From Flammula alnicola (taxonomy: Eukaryota; Basidiomycota; Agaricomycetes; Agaricales; Strophariaceae), in contig JADNRV010000006.1 in assembly GCA_015499995.1 (NCBI GenBank), positions 248,001 to 312,000 of the forward strand: a stretch of DNA of 64,000 bases, written 5' to 3'. Shown piece after piece: positions 34,573 to 55,372 of this stretch. The notes under the pieces were generated by a model that was not told where the DNA came from, did no database searches, and saw only the letters and a list, made by a program, of their open reading frames with translations. The position numbers and the translations under genes were made by a program. How positions within the stretch are numbered: position 1 is the stretch's first letter; every line of letters begins with the position of its first letter.

Positions 34573-34990
34573 AAATGCTGCGCCTTTGGACACCTTAAAA
34601 ACGCAAGCCCACACTTCTCACCGAAATTCACCGGACTTCTAGATAAACGAAAACATTCTTGAAAGAACTGCTAACCATGTAAACTGTACCCTGCTGTTGT
34701 TATTCTTTCTTTATACCGCCCCCGCGACGGTCTCTTATTTATTCAGGCCTGCGTCATGGACTCGAGTATGTATGTAGCTCCGATCTGCCTACTTTCTGCT
34801 ATTGGTGTTGTACGTGTTTTCTCTAGCAGAGAAGGTTATTTGAGACAGACTGTTGTACTTGTCAGCATACTACAATTTTGGGCTTTATTCTTAGAGAAGG
34901 TTGGATGCATGTTGCCAATCCAAAAATCCTACAGCGCCAACAGTTCTCGGCTACAATATGTAGCTCTCTTGGCAAAAGGGAAACCAATGG

Positions 34991-35074
34991 GCCTGACCGG
35001 GAATTGAACCCGGGACCTCCTCGAAACTCCCTGAACGGGCCCTAACAAGGAATCATACTACTAGACCATCAGGC
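34991..35074 (-). tRNA. tRNA-Pro (AGG) with a 15-nt intron
   Basis: The minus strand reads GCCTGAT...GTCAGGC as the acceptor stem (last pair T-G), a D-arm with CTAGTAGTATGA, anticodon stem CCTTG/CGAGG, and T-arm CCGGG TTCAATT CCCGG. The loop begins TTAGGG, placing anticodon AGG at the canonical position, and an intron of about 15 nt (CCCGTTCAGGGAGTT) sits one base 3' of the anticodon, as in eukaryotic nuclear tRNAs. No CCA is encoded. Confidence 0.9.
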
Positions 35075-35229
35075 CGTTGTATAACGTCCTCCAGACCACC
35101 ATCCGGGCTCGGCTGCTGTTCAGGACGCGCAGCGACGGTGGGGGAACACTTGGGGAACACGACTGAATATTACCAGCCTTTGCTTTTACATCTCCATGGC
35201 ACGAATGTACACACCAGCGATTGCCATGT

Positions 35230-42072: not shown

Positions 42073-42221
42073 ACCGCAACTTACAGTCCAGTGAATTTAT
42101 ATCCTGATGCTTGGTTAGGATGCCACTGGTCAGAACGTGCCGCAGGCAAGCAGAGGAATAATGGCGAATCGGAATAAACCCTGTGGCCCGCGATGGCTAA
42201 GAATGAAATATGTTCATTGTT

Positions 42222-42246
42222 GGGCCCGATACTGATGTCGGGTGAA
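42222..42246 (+). repeat. terminal inverted repeat, copy 1 left
   Basis: Begins GGGCCCGATACTGATG; pairs with the reverse complement of 48680-48704. The motif GATACTGA inside it recurs twice near the opposite end. Confidence 0.7.
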
Positions 42247-42635
42247 GAAAATAAATAAATAAAATAAATAAATAAAATAATCGCAGGAACATCTGGAATC
42301 ATCTCGAACCTCTTTGGACTCGACGCACATCTTGAGCGCGTTCACGACCCCCTTGTCAATAGATCACCATGAACGCGATCTATCAACCATCCTCGGTGAA
42401 GAACCTCATCCCTGGTCATCCCTGACCCTGATTGATGGTCCTGATCTGTTCGATCTCGCATTATCTGGGTGTTATCTGAGCCAGATGACAACACAATCCA
42501 AACAGGCCACAGCCGACATCGACCATGGATTTGGGCAGCTGATTTCATGGACAGTTTAAAGATCATTAATATTGAGACGAGGTGCAGTTCTTCTATGCGA
42601 TAACATGGGAATTTATAATGATAGACTACTGTCTT

Positions 42636-45600
42636 TTATAGCCAGGCTTCCCAGCAGGGCACGTCTGGTTTCTTGCTGTTTCTCCCTCGACACGAACTCT
42701 TTTTACAATCAAGACAGACTGCCCCGCAGAACCTGACCTCCTTCTTTCCTTTACACCCATCCTTGAAGCATTTCTGACATCTTCGCGGCTTGCGAGCCCT
42801 CTTTGCGGGTTCCGTTCTCACCAAATGGTCTCCGACACGCTTTCGTGATATATATCCTTGAATGGACGATGTGGAGCTTGTACCGGCAGCCTGGGTGGAC
42901 ACTGCTGCTGCCTGTTGCACGTTGTCAGAATTTCTCGGTGTCGGTGATGTGTTGATTGGTACGTTGAATCCGTGGTTGACACTGTTCGGCTTAGCAGGTC
43001 TTTTAGGTACTGGAGGTGCATGGGCAGATCTTGCGGGGTTCCGAATCGCTTCAAGCACGGGTTTTCGCGTGTTCAGAGTTCTGGAGAGGGTTTCCTTGAC
43101 ATTGAGATTTATCTTCCAGGTATTGTAGTAAGCCGTTAACTGTTCAATGAGCTAATTTCCACTTTCAGACCGAAATCAACGGATGCAGGTGTCCGTAATC
43201 CATACCTTGTACGTCAACTCCTTCTGACCATCGGCAAGGTAGTTCCACACTTTGACGGCCTCCTTCCAATTAGGCGACCCGTTTTTCGGACTAAAGGCCT
43301 CATTTTCGCGCATGAGCTTTCGAAACATATCCCTTTCAGCCGGTGTGTGAATTGGTAGTGCGGGCTTTCTTGTTCCTTGCTTACGTGCGAGGAAAACATG
43401 TTGTCGCTTGCAACCTTCAAGTTCAAGTGAAGGCATGTACTCTGACATTCCGCTGCTTGAACGAACATCAGGAGGTATTGGAAGGATGCCCGAAACCTCG
43501 TTCGCTGGTGTATACAGGTTCCCATTCACCCATCCCGTGATTTTGGGTGCGCCAACGAGAACATCGTGTAAGAATTCTTGTAACTCTTGCCGCTTGTTGG
43601 TGGTCCAGATACTAAAGTGACTTTGATAGCGTTTTCCGGTGCTGTTGAGTGTTCCGACCTGGAATTAGGTGCGTCAGTCATTATTTTGGCACAGCAAAAA
43701 TAAAGTATTGATGTACCAGCAGGTTGTGCCGAATCACGAAGTCAAGAAGGCATGCATTCACGTGTCGGATGGAGGCTCCTGAAGTCGGCAGACGTGAACG
43801 AAGGTGGGTATGCACCCCGCCTTCTGTAAATGTCGTGCCTCGTGAACAGCGGTAGATTGGTAAACCGCCGTTGGCGTTGTCGATACCGATCTGTGTGTAC
43901 AGTGGGATGCCAGGTGGATCTGAGACATAGCCATTGTGAATGAGATTTAGGATGTTCTTCGCAATCCTCCAGGCCGTTGGATTAAAGAGTGGCATCCCTG
44001 TCTTCGCATCTTTGAGCGGCCCATAAGTTCGAAATACAGATTCTACAAGAGGGTACAGCTGTTCAGGAGGTGGAATAACCCTCTTGCAGTGCTTCCAAAC
44101 CCAGGCAGCACGGGTTCGAACAAGGTCGTCGAATGTCAGTGGAGGATCTTGGGTCGCAGCCCAAGCGGCAACACGGCACTTGTCCTCGTTGTCGGGCACA
44201 AAGAGGGCATCACGCAGTGCTTTGCCAAACTCTGGCCGTAGCGAGTGGACTGCCGATATGTAGATTCGGTTGAAAAGGTGAAAAGGGTCATTGACGACCC
44301 GGCTTAGAATTTTGTTGGTCCACTGATTTGGAGGAGGCCCAAGTACAGTGTCACCTTCCGCGGCACTCGATGGATCGACTTCGCATGTAGTAGCTGTGCT
44401 GGCTTCAGCTATGGCTGCTTCGAGGTTGGGCTCATCATCTGGAACTCGGTCCAATATAAGGTCAGCCAATGAAGGATGTTCTTGTTCTTCCGACTCGTCC
44501 AACTGAAAAGCTGTTCCAGGGGTCTTCACGTCAGTTGCCTGTGATGGTGATGTGTCCAGCGTTGGTTGAGTTGGAGATTTGTGGAGATGTGAATCACTAT
44601 TCTCCGATGGCCTGGAGCGCAATGGATTGAGGTTTGAGTTGGGAGGCATTACGTGGATAGCATCAGAAAGTCGGAGGTGGCTTCGCAAGCAGACTAAGGT
44701 GAATGATGGTGGGCCAAAGCTTGCCAGAGCACGTCTACGATGAGAGTTGATAATAGCTCCAGGAACAAGAACTTCAGTTATAGTAACAGCAGTGCGTTTC
44801 GGGGTGATATTAATACCATCATATTCGGTGTCATTGTGGTGCTCAGATATGTGTCCGCGTGCGATTATTCGAGATAAGTCGTCGTGATAAAGGATGATGC
44901 TGGTTAAAGCCGCTAAATTATCGGGTAGAGGCTGTGGAGGATTGATTTGGATAAGTTTCTCGTAAACAAGAAGTGAGGCATAAGCATCGAGCGCAGCGTA
45001 ATTGAGCATCTCTTGGCTAAGCTCTGCCTCTTCCCAAGCAGTACTGATGCGTGATGATGTGTTTTTCGGAAGTTGTTTATGCAGAACGGCAGCACAGAGG
45101 TCTGTAAGACTGCATTTTGCGGAGGTAACAGCCTGTCGTTCCTTGGCAAACTTGGCAAGATCCAATGCACCAACAAAAGGAGACGAAGGTCGACATGCAG
45201 ATTCAAGGTATTTCAAGTCTGCGGCAACCATCCGGCCAACTTTGACCACATTAGGATTCGATAAAAGTAGCATCAAGGCCTGCGGAAGACGCCCCGCTTC
45301 AATCATTGCACCAACCTATAAGGTGAATGAGTATCATTCAAAATATTACATGTGTTAATTATTGCACATGCCTGGAGAATGAAAACACAATTGCCGTGAG
45401 CAATTTGGATAATGGCAGTATGTCCGCGTCCGACAATGCGACCATCAGATGTAGTGTTGATGTTCCATTCAGCATCAAATCCAATGGCAGTCGCTCCATT
45501 TCCGTCAGATGGAAGGCTATCAAGGACGGTTCGGGCAGCATCTTCAATTGCATTCCATGATGCCTTGACAAGAACAACAATGTTTGAAGGAAGAACCAGA

Positions 45601-48563
45601 GGTTCCAAATCTGCATACTTCTCCACGGAAACAACGTCTTGTAGAAGCGAGGGAAAGGAGGATTCAAGAAAGGGTTTATCTCCTAAAACATTGTCGGTAT
45701 AAAATGCCAAAGGAGGTACATGGCCATATTGGTCAAGAGATTCCCTCATTTTCTTGAGAGCGAGTTCGAATTGTGAATGAGCCTCCATCGCAACAAGCGC
45801 ACATACACGAATTTCACCCTTCTCATTCGTGACTGTCAGGAGCCCAGTAAAGATCATTACACCATTGACTCGTGAGATATGCTTCGTGATTATGACTGCC
45901 CAAATGCACATTTATTCTCACGTGCCCGCGCGCGATTTGGGTCTGCGCGCCCCCGAAATGGCCTCAACTCACAATTTCGTCAGGTTTTCAGCTCAAACAT
46001 TCTAACTAGACCTCCCCACATGTATTTAGTAGGTTCAATTAGCTCACATCACTCTCCATTAACACAATGAAGTGAATTGAACTGTTTTTGGCAATAGCCA
46101 AACACTTTCCCACGGATGCTAGACTTTGGTGTATGTATGTGCATCCCTCCATGCCGACTCGAATCCAAAACCTCTGAGCCTTCAATCAACCTGAAATGAC
46201 CTCAATAATAAGCTCAGCCTATCTAATAGACCTTTCTGTATGTTAATATTAATATCTTAAATGACTCAGATAGTCTTTTGAATTTGAGATGCATGTCTTC
46301 GAAGTACAACTAAGTTCGAATTGTAAGAAATTTATATTATTGCTACAAAAATGCTTGTCGCCTTCAAGTTGATTGCTCAAACTCCCAAATGCTGGAGATT
46401 GTGCGAAATTTCAAGTGTTTGGCTGTTGCCAAAAACAGTTCAATTCACTTCATTGTGTTAATGGAGAGTGATGTGAGCTAATCAAGAGCTAAATGAAACT
46501 ACTAAATACATGTGGGGAGGTCTAGTTAGAATGTTTGAGCTGAAAACCTGACGAAATTGTGAGTTGAGGCCATTTCGGGGGCGCGCAGACCCAACTCGCG
46601 CGCGCGCGGGCACGTGAGAATAAATGTGCATTTGGGCAGTCATATCGTGATCTGATACAATATGATTTTAGTCATGTACGTACAAAAAAAGCTATATGTA
46701 TTTGCTTACCTTGTGGCTATGATCAATCGCACAAATCTCTGCACTCAACATGGCGGTGTGCTGGTTTAACTCATCTTGGTGTTCCTCAATGAAGTGGTCA
46801 TACATGTCACGGAGCCACTGAGAACTCGGGACATAGCCATGCGGCCCATTTGGCGAGCGATCTTTGAATGGGAGAAAATCCTCAAACTTCTGACCTCGCC
46901 ATTCCGACAACCCTCGTGACGTAGCAAGGGAATGGAGATATTGAAGATGAAGCTCGTCATATTTCTGCAGATGTTGCACTCGTAAAGCATCAGAGAACTG
47001 CTTTGCTCCCATTCCATTCTGAAAACACGATCGCATAAAAGTGAACAGGGAGTGTGATATACCACTCCGACAACTCAACCGCGCCGGAAATTCTGCCGCT
47101 AATTCGGGTGGTAGCCTGGCAAGAATGCGGCTGTCCCAGCTTCGGAATGTAGCACTTGCTCCTTTTGCGGAAGTACAGTTCGGGCAGCGGTATCGAAAAC
47201 CGATGATCCAGAATGAGCCATTGAGATCAACACAACGGCGTGGAAAGGGGACGTGGTCATGGCGATATAACTTCTTTGAGCAATTTGGGCATGGAATTCC
47301 ATGACACAGCGGCTCTGGATCCCAAAGAAAGAACCGAGGTAGCATGAGATTTGCAGGCGATACATGATCACGACGTAGAATGAAATAGGGTGACAGGCAT
47401 GGGAACCAGAATGTTTGAAGGTCACGGTAAAGTGGCGGAAGGCCTCGGGCGTCACGATTACGGCACTCGTCAACTTTCTGCTGAAATGCAGAAAGAAGCC
47501 ATTGAGGTTGTGGATGGCGCTGGGCTCGACGGGAACTCGAAGATTCGTGCGAATCAGATGCACCGGCAGGTTCAAGGACAGGATCAACCTCGTCTCCTGT
47601 TTTCTCATCCTGCATATCATCATCATCACCCAACCCATCCTCCATCATGCCCGAATAAATGTCTTCGCTATTGTTCGCAGACAAAAGCTCAATGCCACCT
47701 TGGGGGTCTTCATCCGGGATAATGCGATGGGAGTTTACTGAATTGGAGGTAGGTGGCGGAAGTGCGATGTGTTCTGCAGGAGGAGGTGGAGCCTCGGATA
47801 CAGGCCTCGAAGGCGACGACGGCTTGGACCCAGAGTGGGAAGGAGATAAAGAGGACAAATGTCCAATCTCGCTATTCCGGCCGTGGGTGGTGGGTTCCGT
47901 GGCCACGGTGCGGGCTGTGAAAGCGGTTTCAGTGCGGTTTTGCGAACGTGTTGAGCCAACGGTTCCGGGAATAACCTAATTTATTTTTTAGAATGATTTG
48001 AAGCCTTCAGTAATTAAAATTAACATACAATTCTTCCAAACTCGATGGTCGTTGGCGGTACCGCCTTTCGAGGACGACCAAGAGGCTTTTGAGAGACCGT
48101 AACATTGCTCGCTGACCCTGGGTTGTCAACTTCGGCTTGGGCGCGCTGCTTGGGACCTGAGCCACGAGGCCGTCCAACAGGCCGCTTCACGGCTGGCACT
48201 GAGGCTTTCGCGTGCATGCTGGTGCTTTTGTTGCGGCTTCCACGGGGCCGTCCGCGACCACGCTTTGTGGAAGGTGATGATTGGGATGGGCCGGGGTTAT
48301 TAGGGACATCAGAAACTGTGGATTGTGATGATTAGCATTCTTAAAATAAGCACTGTAGAAAGCAACTATACCTTCCGTTAAAGGTGCACTGAGTGATGCC
48401 TCACGGTGGCTATTTCCTTCGATGGAAACATTGTTCTTTGTGCTGCCACCACTGTAACACCGACATGTGAATTTGGATCCAAACTTGAACAGCCATCACG
48501 GACTTACCTCGAGTGTGCAGCCAGATCATTACCGAAGGCGGCGCCCGGGTTGTCGATGTCCAT
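42636..48563 (-). pseudogene. transposase gene of copy 1, disrupted by a foldback element
   Basis: Exons by comparison with copy 2: 48563-48508, 48451-48372, 48315-48029, 47975-46710, 45890-45372, 45315-43717, 43658-43206 and 43139-42636. The 754-bp insertion lies in exon 5, after its first seven bases. If the original 3' splice site is used, the exon reads ITI then a stop inside the element. The AG at the far end of the element would add five bases and put the rest out of frame. So this copy should not make full-length protein, although every other exon is identical in translation to copy 2. The protein is described under copy 2. Confidence 0.8.
45884..46651. mobile_element. 754-bp foldback element (long-TIR MITE) with 7-bp target duplication
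   Basis: Element 45891-46644, flanked by TCGTGAT at 45884-45890 and 46645-46651; copy 2 of the host transposon has a single TCGTGAT there (52371-52377), proving an insertion. Both ends begin TATGACTGCCCAAATGCACA and the inverted arms stay similar for about 215 bp, with small indels, GC-rich CGCGCG runs and a shared TTCACTTCATTGTG stretch. The central 300 bp is AT-rich and non-coding. The long arms should form a stable hairpin. The mobilising family is unknown; 7-8 bp duplications are typical of hAT-like and some other families. Confidence 0.88.
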
Positions 48564-48679
48564 GTGTCTGGTTATGGAGTTCTCAACTTTGCGGTTTGAC
48601 TGACGGCGAAGGTGAACGGTGTGAATATTTCTTTCTTACATAATTATTATGTAAGTAGGTCAGTATCAGAATCAGTATC

Positions 48680-48704
48680 GTCCCCTGGCATGAGTAACGA
48701 GCCC
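48680..48704 (-). repeat. terminal inverted repeat, copy 1 right
   Basis: The reverse complement begins GGGCTCGTTACTCATGCC. It abuts the ATTGT junction at 48705-48709. Confidence 0.7.
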
Positions 48705-48709
48705 ATTGT
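48705..48709. repeat. junction target duplication between the two transposon copies
   Basis: ATTGT, one base short of the ATTGTT found at both outer ends; the first G of copy 2 is also missing. A target-site-like spacer thus separates the head-to-tail copies. Confidence 0.7.
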
Positions 48710-49122
48710 GGCCCGATACTGATGTCGGGTGAAGAAAATAAATAAATAAAATAAATAAATAAAATAATCGCAGGAACATCTGGAATCATCTCGAACCTCT
48801 TTGGACTCGACGCACATCTTGAGCGCGTTCACGACCCCCTTGTCAATAGATCACCATGAACGCGATCTATCAACCATCCTCGGTGAAGAACCTCATCCCT
48901 GGTCATCCCTGACCCTGATTGATGGTCCTGATCTGTTCGATCTCGCATTATCTGGGTGTTATCTGAGCCAGATGACAACACAATCCAAACAGGCCACAGC
49001 CGACATCGACCATGGATTTGGGCAGCTGATTTCATGGACAGTTTAAAGATCATTAATATTGAGACGAGGTGCAGTTCTTCTATGCGATAACATGGGAATT
49101 TATAATGATAGACTACTGTCTT

Positions 49123-52100
49123 TTATAGCCAGGCTTCCCAGCAGGGCACGTCTGGTTTCTTGCTGTTTCTCCCTCGACACGAACTCTTTTTACAATCAAG
49201 ACAGACTGCCCCGCAGAACCTGACCTCCTTCTTTCCTTTACACCCATCCTTGAAGCATTTCTGACATCTTCGCGGCTTGCGAGCCCTCTTTGCGGGTTCC
49301 GTTCTCACCAAATGGTCTCCGACACGCTTTCGTGATATATATCCTTGAATGGACGATGTGGAGCTTGTACCGGCAGCCTGGGTGGACACTGCTGCTGCCT
49401 GTTGCACGTTGTCAGAATTTCTCGGTGTCGGTGATGTGTTGATTGGTACGTTGAATCCGTGGTTGACACTGTTCGGCTTAGCAGGTCTTTTAGGTACTGG
49501 AGGTGCATGGGCAGATCTTGCGGGGTTCCGAATCGCTTCAAGCACGGGTTTTCGCGTGTTCAGAGTTCTGGAGAGGGTTTCCTTGACATTGAGATTTATC
49601 TTCCAGGTATTGTAGTAAGCCGTTAACTGTTCAATGAGCTAATTTCCACTTTCAGACCGAAATCAACGGATGCAGGTGTCCGTAATCCATACCTTGTACG
49701 TCAACTCCTTCTGACCATCGGCAAGGTAGTTCCACACTTTGACGGCCTCCTTCCAATTAGGCGACCCGTTTTTCGGACTAAAGGCCTCATTTTCGCGCAT
49801 GAGCTTTCGAAACATATCCCTTTCAGCCGGTGTGTGAATTGGTAGTGCGGGCTTTCTTGTTCCTTGCTTACGTGCGAGGAAAACATGTTGTCGCTTGCAA
49901 CCTTCAAGTTCAAGTGAAGGCATGTACTCTGACATTCCGCTGCTTGAACGAACATCAGGAGGTATTGGAAGGATGCCCGAAACCTCGTTCGCTGGTGTAT
50001 ACAGGTTCCCATTCACCCATCCCGTGATTTTGGGTGCGCCAACGAGAACATCGTGTAAGAATTCTTGTAACTCTTGCCGCTTGTTGGTGGTCCAGATACT
50101 AAAGTGACTTTGATAGCGTTTTCCGGTGCTGTTGAGTGTTCCGACCTGGAATTAGGTGCGTCAGTCATTATTTTGGCACAGCAAAAATAAAGTATTGATG
50201 TACCAGCAGGTTGTGCCGAATCACGAAGTCAAGAAGGCATGCATTCACGTGTCGGATGGAGGCTCCTGAAGTCGGCAGACGTGAACGAAGGTGGGTATGC
50301 ACCCCGCCTTCTGTAAATGTCGTGCCTCGTGAACAGCGGTAGATTGGTAAACCGCCGTTGGCGTTGTCGATACCGATCTGTGTGTACAGTGGGATGCCAG
50401 GTGGATCTGAGACATAGCCATTGTGAATGAGATTTAGGATGTTCTTCGCAATCCTCCAGGCCGTTGGATTAAAGAGTGGCATCCCTGTCTTCGCATCTTT
50501 GAGCGGCCCATAAGTTCGAAATACAGATTCTACAAGAGGGTACAGCTGTTCAGGAGGTGGAATAACCCTCTTGCAGTGCTTCCAAACCCAGGCAGCACGG
50601 GTTCGAACAAGGTCGTCGAATGTCAGTGGAGGATCTTGGGTCGCAGCCCAAGCGGCAACACGGCACTTGTCCTCGTTGTCGGGCACAAAGAGGGCATCAC
50701 GCAGTGCTTTGCCAAACTCTGGCCGTAGCGAGTGGACTGCCGATATGTAGATTCGGTTGAAAAGGTGAAAAGGGTCATTGACGACCCGGCTTAGAATTTT
50801 GTTGGTCCACTGATTTGGAGGAGGCCCAAGTACAGTGTCACCTTCCGCGGCACTCGATGGATCGACTTCGCATGTAGTAGCTGTGCTGGCTTCAGCTATG
50901 GCTGCTTCGAGGTTGGGCTCATCATCTGGAACTCGGTCCAATATAAGGTCAGCCAATGAAGGATGTTCTTGTTCTTCCGACTCGTCCAACTGAAAAGCTG
51001 TTCCAGGGGTCTTCACGTCAGTTGCCTGTGATGGTGATGTGTCCAGCGTTGGTTGAGTTGGAGATTTGTGGAGATGTGAATCACTATTCTCCGATGGCCT
51101 GGAGCGCAATGGATTGAGGTTTGAGTTGGGAGGCATTACGTGGATAGCATCAGAAAGTCGGAGGTGGCTTCGCAAGCAGACTAAGGTGAATGATGGTGGG
51201 CCAAAGCTTGCCAGAGCACGTCTACGATGAGAGTTGATAATAGCTCCAGGAACAAGAACTTCAGTTATAGTAACAGCAGTGCGTTTCGGGGTGATATTAA
51301 TACCATCATATTCGGTGTCATTGTGGTGCTCAGATATGTGTCCGCGTGCGATTATTCGAGATAAGTCGTCGTGATAAAGGATGATGCTGGTTAAAGCCGC
51401 TAAATTATCGGGTAGAGGCTGTGGAGGATTGATTTGGATAAGTTTCTCGTAAACAAGAAGTGAGGCATAAGCATCGAGCGCAGCGTAATTGAGCATCTCT
51501 TGGCTAAGCTCTGCCTCTTCCCAAGCAGTACTGATGCGTGATGATGTGTTTTTCGGAAGTTGTTTATGCAGAACGGCAGCACAGAGGTCTGTAAGACTGC
51601 ATTTTGCGGAGGTAACAGCCTGTCGTTCCTTGGCAAACTTGGCAAGATCCAATGCACCAACAAAAGGAGACGAAGGTCGACATGCAGATTCAAGGTATTT
51701 CAAGTCTGCGGCAACCATCCGGCCAACTTTGACCACATTAGGATTCGATAAAAGTAGCATCAAGGCCTGCGGAAGACGCCCCGCTTCAATCATTGCACCA
51801 ACCTATAAGGTGAATGAGTATCATTCAAAATATTACATGTGTTAATTATTGCACATGCCTGGAGAATGAAAACACAATTGCCGTGAGCAATTTGGATAAT
51901 GGCAGTATGTCCGCGTCCGACAATGCGACCATCAGATGTAGTGTTGATGTTCCATTCAGCATCAAATCCAATGGCAGTCGCTCCATTTCCGTCAGATGGA
52001 AGGCTATCAAGGACGGTTCGGGCAGCATCTTCAATTGCATTCCATGATGCCTTGACAAGAACAACAATGTTTGAAGGAAGAACCAGAGGTTCCAAATCTG

Positions 52101-54289
52101 CATACTTCTCCACGGAAACAACGTCTTGTAGAAGCGAGGGAAAGGAGGATTCAAGAAAGGGTTTATCTCCTAAAACATTGTCGGTATAAAATGCCAAAGG
52201 AGGTACATGGCCATATTGGTCAAGAGATTCCCTCATTTTCTTGAGAGCGAGTTCGAATTGTGAATGAGCCTCCATCGCAACAAGCGCACATACACGAATT
52301 TCACCCTTCTCATTCGTGACTGTCAGGAGCCCAGTAAAGATCATTACACCATTGACTCGTGAGATATGCTTCGTGATCTGATACAATATGATTTTAGTCA
52401 TGTACGTACAAAAAAAGCTATATGTATTTGCTTACCTTGTGGCTATGATCAATCGCACAAATCTCTGCACTCAACATGGCGGTGTGCTGGTTTAACTCAT
52501 CTTGGTGTTCCTCAATGAAGTGGTCATACATGTCACGGAGCCACTGAGAACTCGGGACATAGCCATGCGGCCCATTTGGCGAGCGATCTTTGAATGGGAG
52601 AAAATCCTCAAACTTCTGACCTCGCCATTCCGACAACCCTCGTGACGTAGCAAGGGAATGGAGATATTGAAGATGAAGCTCGTCATATTTCTGCAGATGT
52701 TGCACTCGTAAAGCATCAGAGAACTGCTTTGCTCCCATTCCATTCTGAAAACACGATCGCATAAAAGTGAACAGGGAGTGTGATATACCACTCCGACAAC
52801 TCAACCGCGCCGGAAATTCTGCCGCTAATTCGGGTGGTAGCCTGGCAAGAATGCGGCTGTCCCAGCTTCGGAATGTAGCACTTGCTCCTTTTGCGGAAGT
52901 ACAGTTCGGGCAGCGGTATCGAAAACCGATGATCCAGAATGAGCCATTGAGATCAACACAACGGCGTGGAAAGGGGACGTGGTCATGGCGATATAACTTC
53001 TTTGAGCAATTTGGGCATGGAATTCCATGACACAGCGGCTCTGGATCCCAAAGAAAGAACCGAGGTAGCATGAGATTTGCAGGCGATACATGATCACGAC
53101 GTAGAATGAAATAGGGTGACAGGCATGGGAACCAGAATGTTTGAAGGTCACGGTAAAGTGGCGGAAGGCCTCGGGCGTCACGATTACGGCACTCGTCAAC
53201 TTTCTGCTGAAATGCAGAAAGAAGCCATTGAGGTTGTGGATGGCGCTGGGCTCGACGGGAACTCGAAGATTCGTGCGAATCAGATGCACCGGCAGGTTCA
53301 AGGACAGGATCAACCTCGTCTCCTGTTTTCTCATCCTGCATATCATCATCATCACCCAACCCATCCTCCATCATGCCCGAATAAATGTCTTCGCTATTGT
53401 TCGCAGACAAAAGCTCAATGCCACCTTGGGGGTCTTCATCCGGGATAATGCGATGGGAGTTTACTGAATTGGAGGTAGGTGGCGGAAGTGCGATGTGTTC
53501 TGCAGGAGGAGGTGGAGCCTCGGATACAGGCCTCGAAGGCGACGACGGCTTGGACCCAGAGTGGGAAGGAGATAAAGAGGACAAATGTCCAATCTCGCTA
53601 TTCCGGCCGTGGGTGGTGGGTTCCGTGGCCACGGTGCGGGCTGTGAAAGCGGTTTCAGTGCGGTTTTGCGAACGTGTTGAGCCAACGGTTCCGGGAATAA
53701 CCTAATTTATTTTTTAGAATGATTTGAAGCCTTCAGTAATTAAAATTAACATACAATTCTTCCAAACTCGATGGTCGTTGGCGGTACCGCCTTTCGAGGA
53801 CGACCAAGAGGCTTTTGAGAGACCGTAACATTGCTCGCTGACCCTGGGTTGTCAACTTCGGCTTGGGCGCGCTGCTTGGGACCTGAGCCACGAGGCCGTC
53901 CAACAGGCCGCTTCACGGCTGGCACTGAGGCTTTCGCGTGCATGCTGGTGCTTTTGTTGCGGCTTCCACGGGGCCGTCCGCGACCACGCTTTGTGGAAGG
54001 TGATGATTGGGATGGGCCGGGGTTATTAGGGACATCAGAAACTGTGGATTGTGATGATTAGCATTCTTAAAATAAGCACTGTAGAAAGCAACTATACCTT
54101 CCGTTAAAGGTGCACTGAGTGATGCCTCACGGTGGCTATTTCCTTCGATGGAAACATTGTTCTTTGTGCTGCCACCACTGTAACACCGACATGTGAATTT
54201 GGATCCAAACTTGAACAGCCATCACGGACTTACCTCGAGTGTGCAGCCAGATCATTACCGAAGGCGGCGCCCGGGTTGTCGATGTCCAT
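49123..54289 (-). CDS. AT-hook / DUF6729 / RNase H-like / DEDDy-exonuclease transposon protein (about 1587 aa)
   Basis: Exons 54289-54234, 54177-54098, 54041-53755, 53701-52436, 52377-51859, 51802-50204, 50145-49693 and 49626-49123 sum to 1588 codons with no frame loss. Intron 5 uses a GC donor (GCATGT). Order: three AT-hooks (KRGRGRPRG, KRPVGRPRG, KPLGRPRKA; about residues 55-135); acidic linker; DUF6729-like module (about 324-414) with LPRFFLWDPE and two CPNC knuckles; a segment with AIDHSHK (Asp 559) and LAFYTDNVLGD (Asp 629) resembling the first two acids of an RNase H-like transposase; 3'-5' exonuclease with FDAEW (Asp 702, Glu 704), VAADLKYLE (Asp 769) and YAALD (Tyr 842, Asp 846), the complete DEDDy set; a long unassigned region; and a C-terminal Cys cluster (CQKCFKDGCKGKK, then CLDCKKSSCRGRNSKKP). 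Element-borne and bounded by inverted repeats, so presumably the transposase. The exonuclease call is firm; the transposase core is inferred, since I could not place a third acid. Confidence 0.8.
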
Positions 54290-54405
54290 GTGTCTGGTTA
54301 TGGAGTTCTCAACTTTGCGGTTTGACTGACGGCGAAGGTGAACGGTGTGAATATTTCTTTCTTACATAATTATTATGTAAGTAGGTCAGTATCAGAATCA
54401 GTATC

Positions 54406-54430
54406 GTCCCCTGGCATGAGTAACGAGCCC
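54406..54430 (-). repeat. terminal inverted repeat, copy 2 right
   Basis: Same as 48680-48704; followed by ATTGTT, the outer target duplication. Confidence 0.7.
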
Positions 54431-54436
54431 ATTGTT

Positions 54437-55372
54437 GACCCAGTGCCCGCATAATTTAAATTAATAACGTGACAGTGCTTGCATTTATCATGTGACCGTG
54501 TTCACCGTGGGGTGTCCGACGGCCGGCCTGTTAACTGAGCCACGTAGTCCCTCAATTATGTTCGAGACGAGAAGTCAGAATCCGTGAGCACAAGGACTGA
54601 AAATGCTGTGAAAACGCGGTCGGATACGTGTTGCTGGACCTATGCGCGATGGTGAGAGTCAACGAACTCAGACGAAAACTTTCGTTCTCGCCATCGCTCG
54701 GCTGGAGGCCGGAACCGGCCGTTCCGCCCCCTTGCTTGACAGTGAATGATATGTACATACTATGTAGACGTCACGAAATTGGGTCTTAACCGGTCTTTCT
54801 TCCATCTCCTACTATAACTTTTTTTCGGCCTTTCTCAGGGGTTGAACGTTGAAGGTTGAACGCTCCGCGCTCAGCGCTCAACAACGTTACTGGAGGATCC
54901 AGCACACATAGTGTTGTTGGCTCAACCTCGCCATCTCGCCACACCAGGCCTCGCCATGTGGCGATCGCCGGGTGGCGATAAAAAAATTCTAAAATGGGGT
55001 GGTGAATGGGTGGCGAGTCCCAATTAAGTAATCACATAGATCCAGAAGTCCATAATACCATATCGATGGAAATTTTAATTGGCCAATACTACACACTGTA
55101 CACAGTCTCTACATTGCTAAAAATGTCCAAAAACAAGGGTGGACATTCAGTGGATGAATTTCTTCACCAACATTTCACACCTGTTGGTGAAAAAACGGCC
55201 TCCAAGTGATGGAATAAATTCTCCGACAGATGGGGATGACCTTTCATCCCCAGTGAGAAACGCACATGACCATAGATAACCACGTTGTACCTAATCTAAT
55301 CTATGTAACGTAATTGAACGATATCCAAACGGTCTTGTTGGCTTCACTTTTTACCCTCATCCACGCCTATCT
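54437..55372. other. non-coding region with palindromes and TCGCCA repeats
   Basis: Contains the palindrome CGGAACCGGCCGTTCCG at about 54709-54725, a GTTGAACG/CGCTCAAC hairpin at about 54840-54890, and a cluster of TCGCCA and TGGCGA motifs at 54925-55020. Possibly the 5' terminal region of the TNP2 element that follows. No gene. Confidence 0.4.

What the first reader, a model, noticed from the sequence alone, without database searches (positions are those of the whole stretch)
42222..54430. Large fungal DNA transposon whose protein combines AT-hooks, DUF6729, a candidate RNase H-like core and a complete DEDDy exonuclease
The element is defined on both sides by inverted ends and a 6-bp duplication, and carries one 1587-codon gene. 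A WRN/RNase D-type 3'-5' exonuclease with all five catalytic residues (Asp 702, Glu 704, Asp 769, Tyr 842, Asp 846) directly follows a region with two Asp motifs typical of transposase cores. An exonuclease inside the presumed transposase could trim transposon or target ends, or take part in excision repair. DUF6729 and exonuclease proteins are common as unexplained hypothetical proteins in mushrooms; this window shows such a protein on a bounded mobile element. I do not know a named superfamily with this architecture.
Basis: partly seen in the sequence, partly recalled or inferred. Interest (0 to 1): 0.88.

Follow-up and report, generated by a model that had tools for sequence, protein, structure and literature searches.

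The report
Mushroom Dada transposon with nested exonuclease
This is a recently moved jumping gene of a mushroom, present as two head-to-tail copies, whose cutting enzyme carries a DNA-trimming enzyme inside its own catalytic core; the design is already known as Dada, but the eight-base target copies and the shorter spacers in its tandem arrays give new clues to how it moves.

Summary
Window 42223-54429 carries two head-to-tail copies of a 5.7-kb DNA transposon, not one, identical except for a 754-bp inverted-repeat element inside copy 1. The pair is flanked by an 8-bp, not 6-bp, duplication (CATTGTTG), and an exact empty site exists elsewhere in the genome. The 1591-aa protein is a DDE transposase with an IS256-like fold. 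The DEDDy exonuclease does not follow the core but is inserted in it, between the second Asp and the DxxH motif (D559, D629, exo 691-857, D1079xxH1082, E1234). That architecture was published in 2013 for the Dada superfamily (Laccaria, Ectocarpus), so the 'unnamed superfamily' idea falls. Added here: defined ends and short inverted repeats for the exonuclease branch, perfect 8-bp duplications at 8 of 13 scored insertions (3 more nearly so), no small-RNA target detected, and tandem arrays at three loci whose spacers are only 6-7 bp of the 8-bp duplication. Zebrafish Dada-U1 shows the same 8-versus-6 discrepancy in that paper. IS256-type transposases make 6-8 bp end-to-end junction spacers, so an IS256-like end-joining step is a testable reading. 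The exonuclease's role is inferred.

The parts
42215..42222 (.). 8-bp target duplication CATTGTTG, left outer copy
   Evidence: single copy in the empty site
42223..48703 (-). Transposon copy 1 (6481 bp including a 754-bp inserted element)
45891..46644 (.). 754-bp long-inverted-repeat element inserted 7 nt into exon 5 of copy 1 with a 7-bp duplication TCGTGAT; copy 1 gene probably broken
48704..48709 (.). Inter-copy spacer CATTGT = 6 of the 8 duplicated bases
48710..54429 (-). Transposon copy 2, uninterrupted, 5720 bp
48710..48726 (.). 3' terminal inverted repeat (protein sense), GGCCCGATACTGATGTC as read on +
   Evidence: 13 of 17 bases match the other end
54413..54429 (.). 5' terminal inverted repeat (protein sense), GGCTCGTTACTCATGCC as read on -
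54430..54437 (.). 8-bp target duplication CATTGTTG, right outer copy
49123..54289 (-). Transposase gene of copy 2: exons 54289-54234, 54177-54098, 54041-53755, 53701-52436, 52377-51859 (GC donor after it), 51802-50204, 50145-49693, 49638-49123; 1591 aa
   Evidence: manual GT/GC-AG model; 126 homologues for aa 320-1420 of which 120 were listed
53788..53991 (-). Three AT-hook-like GRP motifs, about aa 63-130 (motif recalled; not scored by Pfam in this protein)
   Evidence: sequence; G93 74/78, R94 72/79, P95 83/84 rows; no AT_hook match at E <= 1; weak matches in 4 of 39 relatives
52523..53161 (-). DUF6729 (aa 322-534), with CxxC...CxxC (C370, C373, C405, C408)
52448..52450 (-). Transposase catalytic Asp 559 (first D)
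52180..52182 (-). Transposase catalytic Asp 629 (second D, YTDN)
51440..51996 (-). DEDDy 3'-5' exonuclease domain aa 691-857 (contains intron 51803-51858); D702 51961-51963, E704 51955-51957, D769 51704-51706, Y842 51485-51487, D846 51473-51475
50765..50776 (-). DxxH motif D1079-H1082 opening the helical insertion domain
   Evidence: 112 of 112 rows with both positions present
50309..50311 (-). Transposase catalytic Glu 1234 (RGTTFTEGGVH)
   Evidence: 107/108 rows; helix 897-910 of the model
49126..49269 (-). C-terminal Cys-rich domain (about aa 1544-1591)

Best explanation
It is an autonomous Dada-type DNA transposon of a mushroom. One protein presumably binds the short inverted ends (AT-hook-like motifs, DUF6729 with a Cys4 motif) and cuts and joins DNA with a DDE RNase H core of the IS256 fold, leaving 8-bp duplications. 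A WRN-like DEDDy 3'-5' exonuclease is nested in that core between the second Asp and the DxxH/helical insertion domain, and most likely trims 3' DNA ends made during transposition. Shown here by sequence and model: element, ends, 8-bp duplications, empty sites, nesting and conservation of both active sites. Inferred: end binding by the N-terminal part, that the protein is active, which strand the exonuclease trims, and that tandem copies arise when the 3' end of one copy is joined 6-7 bases outside the 5' end of a sister copy.
Against: Dada is described with 6-7 bp duplications, no terminal inverted repeats and small-RNA targets; here they are 8 bp, short inverted repeats exist, and no snRNA or tRNA gene was found at the sites. 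The C-terminal Cys-rich domain lacks the His of the described CCHC finger. I could not compare with the Repbase Dada sequences, and the Laccaria protein P0107 does not keep the exonuclease residues in my alignment, whereas the paper says that the Laccaria Dada do, so P0107 need not be the published element. B1 and D1 have 2 and 1 mismatches in the duplication, B2 a T-run difference; for C1 and C2 none was found next to a recognisable 5' end. Exonuclease residues are changed in 9 of 111 rows, so it may be dispensable in some relatives. No activity was measured, and the tandem mechanism rests on three loci.
Confidence: 0.87

Rival explanations
1. A separate, unnamed superfamily of the IS256/MULE type that acquired its exonuclease independently of Dada.
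For: 8-bp duplications and inverted ends differ from described Dada. Weak MULE profile hits in 4 of 39 members, best E 0.019, at 324-381 in P0067, about the D1-D2 stretch. ISCth4, of the IS256 family, is the best transposase fold match listed.
Against: The exonuclease type, its exact place between the second D and DxxH, the host group (mushrooms, Laccaria) and the N-terminal CCCC motif all match the published Dada description. MULE hits are below the curated cut-off.
Confidence: 0.1
2. The exonuclease is a structural insertion only; its catalysis is not used in transposition.
For: Other transposases carry helical insertion domains at this place (Hermes, Transib, P element, RAG1, as stated in PMC7780238). 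9 of 111 rows have changed catalytic residues.
Against: 102 of 111 rows keep all five residues, and the exonuclease shows a substitution ratio like the core (few changes).
Confidence: 0.2
3. The tandem pairs come from independent insertion of a second copy into the duplication, from unequal crossing over, or from assembly errors.
For: C12 has two different elements separated by a full 8-bp copy of the duplication, as double insertion predicts. Copies in the window pair are identical outside one insertion, and assembly quality could not be checked.
Against: Three arrays have spacers of 6, 7 and 6 bp, shorter than the 8-bp duplication; double insertion or exchange should leave 8. A genome stretch with the empty site exists, so the window pair is not simply two filled alleles merged. 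C48 holds four units, of which the three compared in full are identical.
Confidence: 0.35

Closest known systems
Dada superfamily, exonuclease-bearing members of Laccaria bicolor (Dada-1_LB, Dada-2_LB listed) and Ectocarpus siliculosus (Dada-1_ES) (Kojima and Jurka 2013, PMC3706591)
   Same: Long intron-containing gene; DDE plus DxxH; DEDDy exonuclease between second D and DxxH; N-terminal CCCC motif; Cys cluster about 45 aa from the C-terminus; tandem copies reported for zebrafish Dada-U1 with an apparent 8-bp duplication but a 6-bp spacer
   Different: 8-bp duplications supported by empty sites, short imperfect terminal inverted repeats, no small-RNA target found, C-terminal Cys-rich domain without His
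IS256 family, ISCth4 (PMC7780238)
   Same: RNase H core with helical insertion domain and C/DxxH; 8-bp A/T-rich duplications; 6-8 bp end-to-end junction spacers resemble the 6-7 bp spacers here
   Different: Bacterial; no exonuclease mentioned in the passages read; copy-out mechanism shown there, not here
MULE/Mutator (PF10551)
   Same: 8-11 bp duplications (PMC6446971, passages) and a CxxH/DxxH motif; weak profile hit
   Different: Below curated cut-off; own-genome MULE copies give no profile-profile match (template of two sequences); the word exonuclease does not occur in PMC6446971
KolobokD (PMC9587614) and ISL2EU (PMC4482050)
   Same: Transposons encoding an exonuclease (DEDDh type; YqaJ type)
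   Different: Listed there as an accessory protein (KolobokD) or as a second ORF (ISL2EU), not described as nested in the transposase; other superfamilies

Membership tests
Dada | DDE triad plus DxxH after the second D | tested here: met
   D559, D629, D1079xxH1082, E1234; 95 of 97 and 112 of 112 rows; fold
Dada | In fungal and algal members, DEDDy exonuclease between second D and DxxH | tested here: met
   136 of 137 proteins with both halves, of 224 examined; compared with PMC3706591 text
[quoted passage not shown]
   C370, C373, C405, C408 in the window protein; the fourth Cys is not universal in relatives
[quoted passage not shown] at least two CxxC in the last 130 aa of 44 of 121 rows, many rows being partial
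Dada | 6-7 bp target duplications | tested here: not met
   8 bp in 8 of 13 scored insertions; the 2013 paper could not rule out 8 bp for Dada-U1. Not treated as defining the superfamily
Dada | No terminal inverted repeats | tested here: not met
   13 of 17 terminal bases match in the window element. Not treated as defining
Dada | Insertion in snRNA or tRNA genes (members with definable termini) | tested here: not met
   0 Rfam matches in the window and 40 loci (some overlapping), 0 tRNAs in the 40 loci and in 9 joined empty sites; the one tRNA in the window is 7 kb away. An snRNA gene split by an insertion could be missed. Not treated as defining: the Laccaria members bear no target in their names
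Dada | Sequence homology to Repbase Dada proteins | not testable with these tools
   Repbase sequences and the paper's supplements were not available
IS256 (ISCth4) | RNase H core with helical insertion domain, C/DxxH, 8-bp duplication | tested here: met
IS256 (ISCth4) | Copy-out/paste-in through a circle | not testable with these tools
   Only tandem junction spacers of 6-7 bp seen
MULE | PF10551 match over the curated cut-off | tested here: not met
   4 of 39 members, best E 0.019; P0067 15.7 bits against 27.6
KDZ / Plavaka | Pfam match to their transposase families | tested here: inconclusive
   Not among the 25 families listed of 26 found in 39 members; that Pfam holds such models is recalled

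The most novel reading that the evidence does not exclude
Dada transposons make true 8-bp duplications but join ends to each other 6-7 bp outside a partner's 5' end, as IS256-family transposases do when forming figure-eights and circles. This would be an IS256-like end-to-flank strand transfer in a eukaryote, with the nested exonuclease trimming the 3' ends. The published 6-bp duplication of zebrafish Dada-U1, inferred partly from tandem spacers, would then be a junction spacer and not the duplication.
Probability: 0.3. Interest if true: 0.72.

Novelty: new member of a known kind. Interest (0 to 1): 0.4.

Why it matters
It gives a home to a set of unexplained 'DUF6729 / 3'-5' exonuclease' proteins of mushrooms (126 hits, 120 listed): most are probably transposases, and DUF6729 is their N-terminal part. 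It supplies ends, 8-bp duplications, a polymorphic insertion and a confident structure model for the exonuclease branch of Dada, so activity tests become possible. The spacer data raise a concrete question: does a eukaryotic DDE transposase join ends as IS256 does, and is the nested exonuclease needed for it?

Tried and rejected
Structure of P0025 without an alignment: useless (pLDDT 35). A 6-bp duplication: rejected by ends shared between copies and by empty sites. A first idea that the base next to the 3' end is usually altered: dropped, because B3 proved perfect (I had miscounted a T run). What remains is D1 (1 base) and B1 (2 bases), each next to an element end. Profile-profile comparison with own-genome MULE copies: no match (probability 0.1, template of two sequences). 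Search for exonuclease-free relatives with the core alone: 353 hits, the 120 listed all at E <= 1.8e-90. Among all 224 proteins then held, only P0091 had both core halves and no exonuclease match. The size window left out proteins over about 1,050 aa, and the weaker hits were not listed, so animal Dada proteins could not be seen. Papers: no text with DUF6729. Searches found nothing. led to PMC4482050 (passages: a YqaJ exonuclease as a second ORF in ISL2EU). led to PMC12730594 (the word exonuclease absent; text part 1). One search listed five papers, of which I looked into PMC3985635 and PMC7473861 (passages). Searches were listings on other terms; from them I looked into PMC9674265, PMC7780238, PMC9587614 and PMC6446971. 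'Dada' appeared in a family table of PMC7473861; I then recalled the 2013 paper and its DOI. My keyword searches had missed it, so other relevant papers may also have been missed. Transposase folds other than ISCth4 and integrases were not among the rows shown; that excludes nothing. C147 holds two related non-autonomous right ends 1443 bp apart, but no intact 5' end stands at the junction; it is not counted as an array.

Full report
WHAT IS IN THE WINDOW. Two copies of one element lie head to tail at 42223-48703 and 48710-54429. Outside a 754-bp insertion in copy 1 they do not differ by a single base. Ends in protein sense are GGCTCGTTACTCATGCC... and ...GACATCAGTATCGGGCC, 13 of 17 bases complementary. 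The pair is flanked by CATTGTTG on both sides; between the copies stands only CATTGT. Joined flanks with one CATTGTTG match C85:59180-59399 over 220 of 220 bases, so filled and empty sites both occur in this assembly, presumably as two haplotypes (inference), and the insertion left an 8-bp duplication.

THE FAMILY IN THE SAME GENOME (74.4 Mb, 861 contigs). A protein search found 50 exon-level matches, which I group into six sequence families: A (window), B (C27, C201 twice, C439, C68 truncated), C (C323, C223), D (C346), E (C257, C220 twice) and F (C179, C334), plus a distant one on C174. B copies at different places stop being alike at the same ends. I compared both ends of 13 insertions. Perfect 8-bp duplications: window pair, B3, E1, the C220 pair, F1, F2, the 867-bp element of C667 (L071) and the second element at C12 = 8 of 13. 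B2 differs by one T in a run (B4 shares B2's flanks and is not counted again), D1 by 1 base, B1 by 2. For C1 and C2 none was found next to a recognisable 5' end; C1 does carry its right-flank octamer ACATATTC upstream, but without a GGC end beside it. B5 is truncated, and the left side of the C48 array is disrupted, so neither is scored. The pattern search gave 29 right ends; a left end with a duplication inside the 1.5 kb held was found automatically for only one of these loci (L071), so most of the rest are not scored. Empty sites were sought for 6 insertions: full-length matches for A (100%), B3 (100%) and the C220 pair (99% at C734, and eight more full-length at 91-95%); for F1 (100% over 41-220 at C445, C124 and C45, 42-220 at C434), F2 (up to 99% over 1-141) and B1 (96% over 2-123) repeat copies run across the junction at 110. 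The nine duplications listed (B1, B2 and D1 left out, C48 included) are 35% G+C and share no sequence; the joined flanks do not resemble each other.

THE PROTEIN. Exons joined by hand give 1591 aa. Pfam: DUF6729 and PF01612. 126 homologues at E <= 0.001, of which 120 were listed; the named ones are mostly mushrooms, with several proteins from some species (for example Ephemerocybe, Arthromyces, Mycena pura), plus the yeasts Sporobolomyces and Rhodosporidiobolus (the grouping of genera is recalled). In the alignment of the window protein with these 120, D559, D629, D1079, H1082 and E1234 are over 98% conserved and the five exonuclease residues over 95%. With all positions present: DDE 95 of 97, DxxH 112 of 112, DEDDy 102 of 111. 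Between two own-genome copies (C1, C2) the approximate nonsynonymous/synonymous ratio is 0.15 for the exonuclease (3 and 6 changes), 0.04 and 0.16 for the two core halves, 0.67 for the linker, 0.25 for the N-terminal part, 0.11 for the C-terminal part, and 0.18 overall; counts are small.

WHAT IT IS. Kojima and Jurka 2013 (PMC3706591; text part 1 of 4 and passages read) define Dada: DDE plus DxxH, N-terminal CCCC and C-terminal CCHC motifs, 6-7 bp duplications, no terminal inverted repeats, small-RNA targets where ends were definable. They state that Dada of Laccaria bicolor and Ectocarpus siliculosus carry a DEDDy exonuclease between the second D and DxxH, and suggest that it processes 3' ends. 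A Laccaria bicolor protein in my set (P0107) has the same order of parts, though its exonuclease residues are not kept in my alignment, so it need not be the published element. I therefore file the element with the exonuclease-bearing Dada, at about 0.87, without having seen the Repbase sequences. The nesting and its proposed role are theirs; a paper on Agaricus bisporus lists 15 Dada families (PMC7473861, passage).

WHAT DIFFERS OR IS ADDED. (a) 8-bp duplications, with empty sites. (b) Short imperfect terminal inverted repeats beginning GGCY. (c) No snRNA or tRNA gene at the targets: 0 Rfam matches in the window and 40 loci (some overlapping), 0 tRNAs in those loci and in 9 joined sites; the window's one tRNA is 7 kb away. 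(d) Tandem arrays: window (spacer 6), C220 pair (7), C48 with four 1123-bp non-autonomous copies preceded by a 28-bp piece of a right end (spacer 6), and C12, where two different elements stand 8 apart. The junction pattern gave 9 hits, 7 of them junctions at these four loci and 2 that look like chance; its reversed control gave 1. No right-end-to-right-end junction was found; left-to-left was not searched. In protein sense the window spacer lacks the first two bases of the duplication, the C220 spacer the first; the C48 spacer lacks the first and one G of a G run. So the 3' end of the upstream copy seems joined 6-7 bp outside the 5' end of the next.

HOW IT MAY WORK. Established: RNase H-type DDE chemistry for this fold; ISCth4 makes 8-bp duplications and end-to-end junctions with 6-8 bp spacers, in both directions, and IS256 circles have spacers of 5, 6, 7 and 19 bp (PMC7780238, section 7 and passages). 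The zebrafish Dada-U1 passage reports an apparent 8-bp duplication and a 6-bp tandem spacer, and settles on 6 partly because of the spacer. Inference: solo insertion gives 8 bp, while tandem copies come from strand transfer into the flank of a partner end, as in IS256. Double insertion remains likely for C12. The exonuclease, closest to WRN by sequence and fold, is placed in the chain next to the transposase active site and probably trims 3' ends of flanking DNA; nothing here shows which.

VERDICT. A real, recently mobile element; the striking architecture is already in print; the points added are ends, 8-bp duplications, targets and spacer lengths.

Noticed in passing
window 45891-46644: 754-bp element with inverted-repeat arms of over 200 bp (segments 97-100% complementary) and a 7-bp duplication TCGTGAT, inserted 7 nt into exon 5 of transposon copy 1; absent from copy 2, so it arrived after the copies separated or was lost from one.
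   Followed up: partly
G000:C48:121878-126428 (L048-L051, L073): Array of four 1123-bp non-autonomous copies (the three compared in full are identical) with spacer CTCGGC, preceded by a 28-bp fragment of a right end; outer right flank GCTCGGCG.
   Followed up: partly
B1 (C27:24397-31231) and D1 (C346): Three substitutions inside target duplications all lie at the base touching an element end (B1 both ends, judged against repeat copy L086; D1 one end). Possibly carried-over or mis-trimmed flank bases.
   Followed up: partly
L003 (C849:153686) and L004 (C778:569380): Stray ends related to the window element (93% over 84 bases and 84% over 61 bases); the rest of these elements was not traced.
   Followed up: no
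G000:C334:936067 (F2 flank) and other places: F2 is inserted in an abundant repeat rich in GGTAAATTACC-like motifs: 37 of the 40 scored matches are other places that run across the insertion point, two of them inside or beside the C147 non-autonomous elements.
   Followed up: no
proteins P0062, P0064, P0070, P0071, P0089, P0118 (all Mycena by name): An exonuclease catalytic residue is changed (mostly the first Asp) while the transposase residues present are mostly kept, hinting at relatives that lost exonuclease activity.
   Followed up: no
window 34989-35075: ARAGORN calls a tRNA-Thr on the minus strand (bacterial settings); not connected to the transposon. Rfam gave no match in the window at gathering score.
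   Followed up: no
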